DNA of 64,000 nt from Agelaius tricolor. Its lineage: Eukaryota; Chordata; Aves; Passeriformes; Icteridae. A program made the translations under genes and the position numbers. The notes under the pieces are model-generated. The model had not been told where the DNA came from. It saw nothing but the letters and a program-made list of their open reading frames with translations, and did not search any database. How positions within the stretch are numbered: position 1 is the stretch's first letter; each line of letters begins with the position of its first letter. Below are positions 57,147 through 57,780 of this stretch, one piece after another. Location: contig JALJCS010000009.1 in NCBI GenBank assembly GCA_023055355.1, positions 27,925,001 to 27,989,000 of the forward strand, given 5' to 3'.

Positions 57147-57415
57147 GTACTGAAAGAGGAACTAGTTGACGGTTGGGGCTGTTAGGTCAAAACCCAGCAC
57201 TTTGAGAAGCAAGTGTTCCATTCTTAGCAGCTGCTTCTTTGTGTAGGTATCATCTGTTATATAGACAAATTCATACTGATGATGCAGTTGGGCACTTCAT
57301 TTTTTCTACATGAAGTGATGGTGTTTTCAAAGCCAGAAAAGCGACTGATAACAGCAGCACCCTGGCCGCCAGGCCACTGCTGCTGCTGCCCGTTCTCTGT
57401 CAGCACCCCCAGCAC
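57147..57415 (-). pseudogene. CCNA1: Captured cyclin A1-like fragment (two pieces, decayed)
   Basis: Cyclin A1 is a germline A-type cyclin that activates CDK2. Two collinear pieces read on the minus strand. Piece 1 (57415-57284) reads VLGVLTENGQ, then GQGAAVISRFSGFENT, ending in EVPNC. This follows the order of the cyclin A1 N-terminal region around its VLG-LT-NGQ and SGSEN motifs. Piece 2 (57272-57147), in a different frame, reads EFVYITDDTYTKKQ, then HLLLKVLGFDL and TAPTVN. A TAG at 57164-57162 stands where cyclins have Gln, and FLFQY follows. This is part of the cyclin box. Well over 150 residues that normally lie between the pieces, including the first cyclin-box helices, are missing. Frame change plus stop means no functional cyclin. 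The double-leucine variant in QLL/HLLL favours A1 over A2. Piece 2 is strong; piece 1 is good but weaker. Confidence 0.85.
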
Positions 57416-57780
57416 GGCCCAGCCGCCGCTGCTGCGGAGGGCGGCGGGGCAGGACTCCTGCCGTCCCGCACGGCTCTGCTCTCCAGTGCGATGCATCACC
57501 CCGACATCGGTACCGCGCTGCCCGGCTCCGCTCGCCACCAGCCCACAGAAGGGTCCGGCCGCCCCGCGCCACCCAGGCTGCCTGCCGGCCCTGCGTAGGC
57601 GCGGCCCCTGGAGGCGGCGGCTGTTGGCCACGGCTGGTTGGGAGGCCGGCGGCTCAACCCCCGGCGCACCGCTTCGCCAGCCCCGCCGGCTGCGGGCCGC
57701 CATGGTGACACCGCCCCTTCTGGGGCTCGTCACCCTGCGGCACATAAGGCGGAGGCCTCACCTAGGCTCCCTTGGACCCT
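57416..57780 (-). other. GC-rich CpG-dense block upstream of the cyclin fragment
   Basis: About 360 bp, very GC- and CpG-rich, unlike the flanking genome. A minus frame (57745-57257, 162 codons) runs through it into cyclin piece 1. An internal Met-His (near 57499) precedes the cyclin-like part in the same way as the short human cyclin A1 isoform begins Met-His. I infer that this block is the 5' untranslated or promoter-proximal part of the captured cyclin gene, with the frame open by composition. The alternative is that part of it is retroviral gag remnant. Confidence 0.5.

What the first reader, a model, noticed from the sequence alone, without database searches (positions are those of the whole stretch)
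57147..57745. Host cyclin A1-like sequence captured inside a defective endogenous retrovirus
Between a truncated gag and the polypurine tract of an LTR-flanked element, the element strand encodes EFVYITDDTYTKKQ and HLLLKVLGFDL, hallmarks of the A-type cyclin box. Upstream lies VLGVLTENGQ...SGFENT, which follows the cyclin A1 N-terminus. The two pieces are in order and on the element's coding strand, with the intervening part deleted, as expected for transduction of a cellular gene rather than random insertion. Known precedents for the class are oncogene-carrying avian retroviruses and the separate viral cyclin of walleye dermal sarcoma virus. I know of no described A-type cyclin transduction in a bird ERV. 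The present copy is dead (internal deletion, frame change, TAG in the box).
Basis: partly seen in the sequence, partly recalled or inferred. Interest (0 to 1): 0.93.

Follow-up and report, generated by a model that had tools for sequence, protein, structure and literature searches.

The report
Cyclin A1 fragments inside dead retrovirus
A dead retrovirus fossil in this genome carries two broken pieces of the host cell-division gene cyclin A1, most likely picked up when the virus copied a cellular messenger RNA; retroviruses are known to take host growth genes, but the paper searches made here listed no case with this gene.

Summary
On the minus strand, between two LTRs (228 and 229 bp; 12 substitutions in 228 aligned sites), lie two collinear pieces of an A-type cyclin. 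The box piece (57272-57147) matches cyclin A2 chains in the PDB at E 2.4e-18. The N-terminal piece (57415-57302) matches cyclin A1, not A2: 0 of 2000 shuffles reach the A1 score, 1538 of 2000 reach the A2 score (references recalled). tblastn of recalled mouse cyclin A1 over the window gives no other match below E 1. The element is alpharetrovirus-like: its gag matrix matches Pfam Retro_M (E 2.1e-9). Capture of a cyclin A1 mRNA during retroviral replication is the best explanation (0.72). A composition step inside the N-terminal piece would fit a spliced exon junction, but splicing was not shown. The decisive search for other copies and the parent gene could not be made: the genome search did not answer 20 of 20 times. 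It is a known kind (retroviral capture of a host gene) with a captured gene that the ten paper searches did not list. One dead copy; a bird host is inferred, not shown.

The parts
58831..59058 (-). 5' LTR (228 bp)
   Evidence: 94.3% identical to the 3' LTR; 12 substitutions in 228 aligned sites, K2P 0.055
56047..56275 (-). 3' LTR (229 bp); TATAAAA and AATAAA readable in both LTRs on the element strand
56041..56046 (.). possible target-site duplication, left copy CCTCGA
   Evidence: 5 of 6 bases equal to the right flank
59059..59064 (.). possible target-site duplication, right copy CCTCAA
58811..58828 (-). primer-binding-site-like sequence TGGTGCCGAAACCTGGGA, two bases from the LTR
   Evidence: assignment to tRNA-Phe is recalled
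58432..58690 (-). leader with a tandem array of 30-bp units, 8.7 copies
58149..58409 (-). gag matrix (MA) reading, starting MEPLAKV, followed by a stop; the profile match covers residues 33-88 of the ORF 58424-58146
   Evidence: Pfam Retro_M E 2.1e-9; retroviral matrix chains in the PDB E 2e-9; start checked
57762..58145 (-). continuation in the same frame as MA, with 27-bp repeats at 57806-57963; ends at a stop
57741..57755 (-). PPPYV in the gag frame (resemblance to the alpharetroviral late domain is recalled, untested)
57497..57740 (-). very GC-rich stretch of unproven origin; possibly 5'UTR or first-exon sequence of cyclin A1
   Evidence: 78% G+C and CpG o/e 0.85 over 57494-57740; no Pfam match to ORFs covering it
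57284..57496 (-). cyclin A1 N-terminal piece, from an in-frame ATG (MHR...) to ...NEVPNC; aligned homology 57415-57302
57147..57272 (-). cyclin box piece EFVYITDD...FLFQY with one in-frame TAG, in another frame than the N-terminal piece
   Evidence: PDB cyclin A2 E 2.4e-18; Pfam Cyclin_N 1.3e-7; tblastn 3.35e-17
56291..57146 (-). 3' region without identified homology; acceptor-like TTTGTTTTGCAG at 57019-57008; A-rich (AAAC)n stretch at 56543-56616
56276..56290 (-). polypurine tract

Best explanation
A simple alpharetrovirus-like element took up part of a cellular cyclin A1 (CCNA1) mRNA during reverse transcription. The chimeric genome kept LTRs, primer site, leader, gag matrix through a PPPYV motif, then host sequence (perhaps including 5'UTR or first exon), then the 3' end with the polypurine tract; pol is absent. 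It would therefore have needed a helper, and it integrated as a provirus with a short target duplication. About 180 codons between the cyclin A1 N-terminus and the box are missing, so this copy, with its frame change and stops, makes no cyclin. Shown: LTR structure, gag matrix identity, cyclin identity, order and strand. Inferred: RNA-level capture, splicing, helper dependence, and that the deletion came after capture. Unknown: whether the element ever carried a whole, growth-promoting cyclin. The stated confidence covers capture during retroviral replication, be it once or in a lineage.
For: Provirus anatomy with both LTRs, PBS, PPT and a possible TSD around the insert. Alpharetroviral matrix. 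Two collinear cyclin A pieces on the element's coding strand, the only 2 of 9 rows below E 1 in a window-wide tblastn with recalled mouse CCNA1. The N-terminal piece is A1-specific. The cyclin's 3' end is missing and no poly(A) follows it directly. Loss of pol fits the statement that capture usually costs at least one retroviral domain (PMC4299795, passages). The template-switch route is described in PMC5408686 (passages).
Against: No other copy, parent gene or exon map was examined. The composition step is only indirect. The 3' region (56291-57146) is unidentified, so the 3' edge rests on loss of cyclin similarity. An 8-bp repeat (CAGGGTGA on the element strand; 57118-57125 and 57730-57737) lies at both sides of the insert and could mark an insertion into the element; 240 of 3451 random stretch pairs in the element share a word as long (130 of somewhat fewer than 2000). 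An A-rich stretch lies about 530 bp downstream of the cyclin part. [quoted passage not shown]
Confidence: 0.72

Rival explanations
1. A processed retrocopy of CCNA1 made by another element was inserted into an already resident provirus and later eroded.
For: An 8-bp direct repeat lies on both sides of the insert. An A-rich stretch lies at 56543-56616. The 3' region between cyclin and A-rich stretch is unidentified and could be host 3'UTR. Non-LTR retrocopies are reported for chicken too (PMC5408686, passage).
Against: A repeat of that length is found in 240 of 3451 control pairs, so it is weak evidence. No poly(A) precedes its 3' copy. A repeat around the A-rich end is at chance level (7-nt word; 1007 of 1684 controls as long). 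The piece keeps the gene's 5' end and stops inside the box, the reverse of 5'-truncated retrocopies (general knowledge).
Confidence: 0.12
2. One-off LTR-mediated retroposition: a single chimeric cDNA made by template switching in a particle, never a replicating cyclin-carrying virus. This is the modest form of the favoured mechanism, so its odds lie within that figure.
For: [quoted passage not shown] 2016, which is not held). Only one copy is known here.
Against: None decisive; with one copy it cannot be told from a replicating lineage.
Confidence: 0.45
3. DNA-level rearrangement or assembly chimera joining CCNA1 gene fragments to an ERV.
For: Not excluded; no reads or second assembly were available.
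Against: LTRs and a possible target duplication enclose the insert. Two separate gene parts lie in order within about 30 bp of each other, without intron-length sequence between them.
Confidence: 0.1

Closest known systems
Host-gene capture in crocodilian ERVs (CrocERV29 KIT-ligand, CrocERV31 nectin3; PMC4299795)
   Same: Host mRNA-derived sequence inside an endogenous retrovirus
   Different: Other retroviral groups and genes, ORFs reported under purifying selection, nectin3 in six insertions replacing env, KIT-ligand without loss of a viral domain; here one dead copy with an alpharetroviral matrix and no pol
Oncogene-carrying alpharetroviruses (Rous sarcoma virus; avian carcinoma virus MH2)
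   Same: Alpharetroviral gag type and host proliferation gene on the coding strand (general knowledge; RSV origin discussed in PMC13297096, passages)
   Different: Exogenous viruses; I recall none with a cyclin; here no working product
Retroviral cyclin (rv-cyclin) of walleye dermal sarcoma virus (PMC3185748)
   Same: Cyclin-box sequence in a retrovirus
   Different: Epsilonretrovirus accessory gene with under 20% identity to any metazoan cyclin; here 86% identity over 42 positions to recalled mouse cyclin A1
LTR-mediated retrocopies (Tan et al. 2016, as summarised in PMC5408686)
   Same: mRNA part joined to LTR-element sequence by template switching
   Different: Junction microsimilarity, the hallmark described, could not be tested without the parent mRNA
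HBV/cyclin A hybrid in a hepatocellular carcinoma (PMC3185520)
   Same: A-type cyclin joined to viral sequence
   Different: Viral DNA inserted into the host gene in a tumour, not capture of the gene by a virus (passages)

Membership tests
Alpharetrovirus-like endogenous retrovirus | Alpharetroviral matrix domain in gag | tested here: met
   Pfam Retro_M E 2.1e-9; 4 matrix chains in the PDB E 2e-9 to 5.2e-9 (that they are Rous sarcoma virus proteins is recalled)
Alpharetrovirus-like endogenous retrovirus | Paired LTRs with target duplication, primer site and polypurine tract | tested here: met
   duplication 5 of 6 bases
Alpharetrovirus-like endogenous retrovirus | Alpharetroviral pol and env | tested here: not met
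   no pol or env family among the Pfam hits of the pieces tested; the class rests on gag matrix alone
Cyclin A1 (CCNA1) | A-type cyclin box | tested here: met
   the box alone does not separate A1 from A2 (scores 188, 185, 184)
Cyclin A1 (CCNA1) | A1-specific N-terminus | tested here: met
   scores 69 and 79 vs recalled A1 (0 of 2000 shuffles each), 23 vs recalled A2 (1538 of 2000); Pfam Cyclin_N2 only E 0.19
Retroviral transduction of a cellular gene | Host sequence within proviral ends on the coding strand | tested here: met
Retroviral transduction of a cellular gene | Introns absent (spliced origin) | tested here: inconclusive
   composition step consistent with an exon junction; no parent gene available
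Retroviral transduction of a cellular gene | Several proviral copies share the insert | not testable with these tools
   The genome search 'own' unanswered (20 of 20)
LINE-type processed retrocopy | 3' end with poly(A) and flanking target duplication | tested here: inconclusive
   no poly(A) at the cyclin end or at the 8-bp repeat; A-rich stretch about 530 bp away without a flanking repeat beyond chance
Walleye-type rv-cyclin | Divergent accessory cyclin of an epsilonretrovirus | tested here: not met
   alpharetroviral matrix; 86% identity to recalled host cyclin over 42 positions

The most novel reading that the evidence does not exclude
The fossil descends from a replicating, helper-dependent alpharetrovirus lineage that carried a functional cyclin A1: a growth-promoting virus built on a cell-cycle cyclin that entered the germ line. 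In this copy the arginine expected at the cyclin's destruction box (recalled motif) is not present; whether that was so in the virus or is later decay is unknown.
Probability: 0.25. Interest if true: 0.85.

Novelty: new member of a known kind. Interest (0 to 1): 0.58.

Why it matters
Capture of host genes by retroviruses is the classic origin of viral oncogenes, but germ-line fossils of it are few. An A-type cyclin would be a new captured gene, still close to its host parent, unlike the divergent fish-virus cyclin. Cyclin A1 acts mainly in the testis (recalled), so a capture in germ cells is plausible. With the genome in hand the event can be tested directly through copy number, exon junctions and orthologous loci.

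Tried and rejected
Chance match: rejected. A nearby CCNA1 gene supplying the exons: rejected for this window, no further match below E 1. Retrocopy with tail and duplication: not supported, not excluded. Other copies in the window: none at E 1e-3 besides the LTR pair and internal repeats. Relatives in IMG/VR by matrix protein (10 pattern matches, none confirmed), cyclin DNA pattern and two LTR patterns, in bacterial and archaeal genomes and in phages with the LTR: none, but these collections are poor places for animal DNA. Pfam on 10 of the 77 stop-to-stop ORFs of 90 aa or more (count; chosen by length and spread): no hit at E 0.1. Sub-threshold Pfam hits taken as chance: GRIN_C 0.031 and HTH_SB 0.11, Toxin_24 0.032. 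Rfam: one hit far below its cut-off (mir-1538, 27 of 78 bits, inside the insert). No tRNA (bacterial code). One CR1-tail-like pattern: 0 matches, so no bird marker from it. NCBIfam: none. Papers: ten searches (listings of 2 to 25 rows, several of them capped) listed no cyclin A1 capture by an ERV; the library is open-access only. Passages of PMC13297096 (no 'cyclin') and PMC2717909 (cyclin D1 only) gave no precedent.

Full report
Observation. The element runs on the minus strand from 59058 to 56047. Its LTRs (58831-59058, 56047-56275) align with 12 substitutions in 228 sites and 2 gap columns (K2P 0.055), begin TG and end CA, and are flanked by CCTCGA and CCTCAA. A primer-site-like TGGTGCCGAAACC starts two bases after the 5' LTR and a polypurine tract touches the 3' LTR. 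The tRNA-Phe assignment is recalled.

Virus type. The ORF at 58146-58424 matches Pfam Retro_M at E 2.1e-9 and 4 retroviral matrix chains in the PDB at E 2e-9 to 5.2e-9, the other 7 of 11 rows starting at E 0.3. That those chains are Rous sarcoma virus proteins is recalled. The same frame continues past a stop through a 27-bp repeat region to a second stop and then PPPYV at 57755-57741; that this is the alpharetroviral late domain is a recalled resemblance. No pol or env family was among the Pfam hits of the pieces searched, so the class rests on the matrix domain.

Cyclin. The box piece at 57272-57147 hits 45 distinct PDB sequences at E 0.001 or better, cyclin A2 best at 2.4e-18 and cyclin B1 far behind at 3.7e-5; none is named A1. 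Pfam gives Cyclin_N at 1.3e-7. The box alone does not separate A1 from A2 (188 and 185 against recalled mouse and human A1, 184 against recalled human A2). The N-terminal piece does: 69 and 79 against A1 with 0 of 2000 shuffles reaching either, but 23 against A2 with 1538 of 2000 reaching it. Its ORF is the best of 2243 six-frame segments of 20 residues or more against recalled mouse A1 residues 1-110 (69, next 43). Weaker results: Pfam Cyclin_N2 only at E 0.19, under its cut-off, for the 45-residue cut and nothing for the 71-residue cut; no PDB match. tblastn of recalled mouse A1 over the whole window gives 9 rows at E 10: the box (3.35e-17), the N-terminus (0.004) and seven others, the best at 1.2. 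About 180 residues between the pieces are missing; the pieces lie about 30 bp apart and in different frames, and the box holds a TAG.

Edges and origin. Upstream of the N-terminal piece lies 247 bp of 78% G+C sequence (CpG o/e 0.85). Inside that piece, near 57365, G+C drops from 0.74 to 0.42 and CpG o/e from 0.69 to 0.21 (bounds chosen by eye, no control). A CpG-island first exon joined to a later exon would look like this, which favours an mRNA source but does not prove one. The 8-bp repeat CAGGGTGA (element strand; 57118-57125 and 57730-57737) borders the insert; 240 of 3451 random stretch pairs in the element share a word as long. The A-rich stretch at 56543-56616 has no flanking repeat beyond chance (1007 of 1684 controls as long). 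The captured part keeps the gene's start and lacks its end, opposite to usual retrocopies. I therefore favour capture during retroviral replication. With one copy I cannot tell a one-off chimeric cDNA from a replicating cyclin-carrying virus.

Literature. Captures of KIT-ligand and nectin3 mRNAs by crocodilian ERVs are published (PMC4299795; passages and section 10). Retrocopies made by LTR elements through template switching are described, with chicken showing both LTR and non-LTR routes (PMC5408686, passages). Walleye rv-cyclin has under 20% identity to metazoan cyclins (PMC3185748, passages). An HBV/cyclin A hybrid encoding a stabilised cyclin A is reported from one liver cancer (PMC3185520, passages). 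Alpharetrovirus-related ERVs are widespread in birds at very low copy number (PMC4272516, one passage). None of the listings of ten searches showed a cyclin A1 capture (several listings were capped).

Limits. The genome search was busy in 20 of 20 attempts and the protein database was off. Copy number, parent gene, exon map, host species and empty site are therefore open.

Noticed in passing
58432-58690: Tandem array of 30-bp units (8.7 copies) in the leader between primer site and gag.
   Followed up: partly
57806-57963: 27-bp tandem repeats within the gag frame after the matrix domain.
   Followed up: partly
56291-57146: Unidentified 3' region with an acceptor-like TTTGTTTTGCAG at 57019-57008 and an A-rich (AAAC)n stretch; may be env remnant, host 3'UTR or neither.
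   Followed up: partly
57703-57260: An ATG in good context (CACCATGG) at 57703 opens a frame that runs without a stop into the cyclin A1 N-terminal piece.
   Followed up: no
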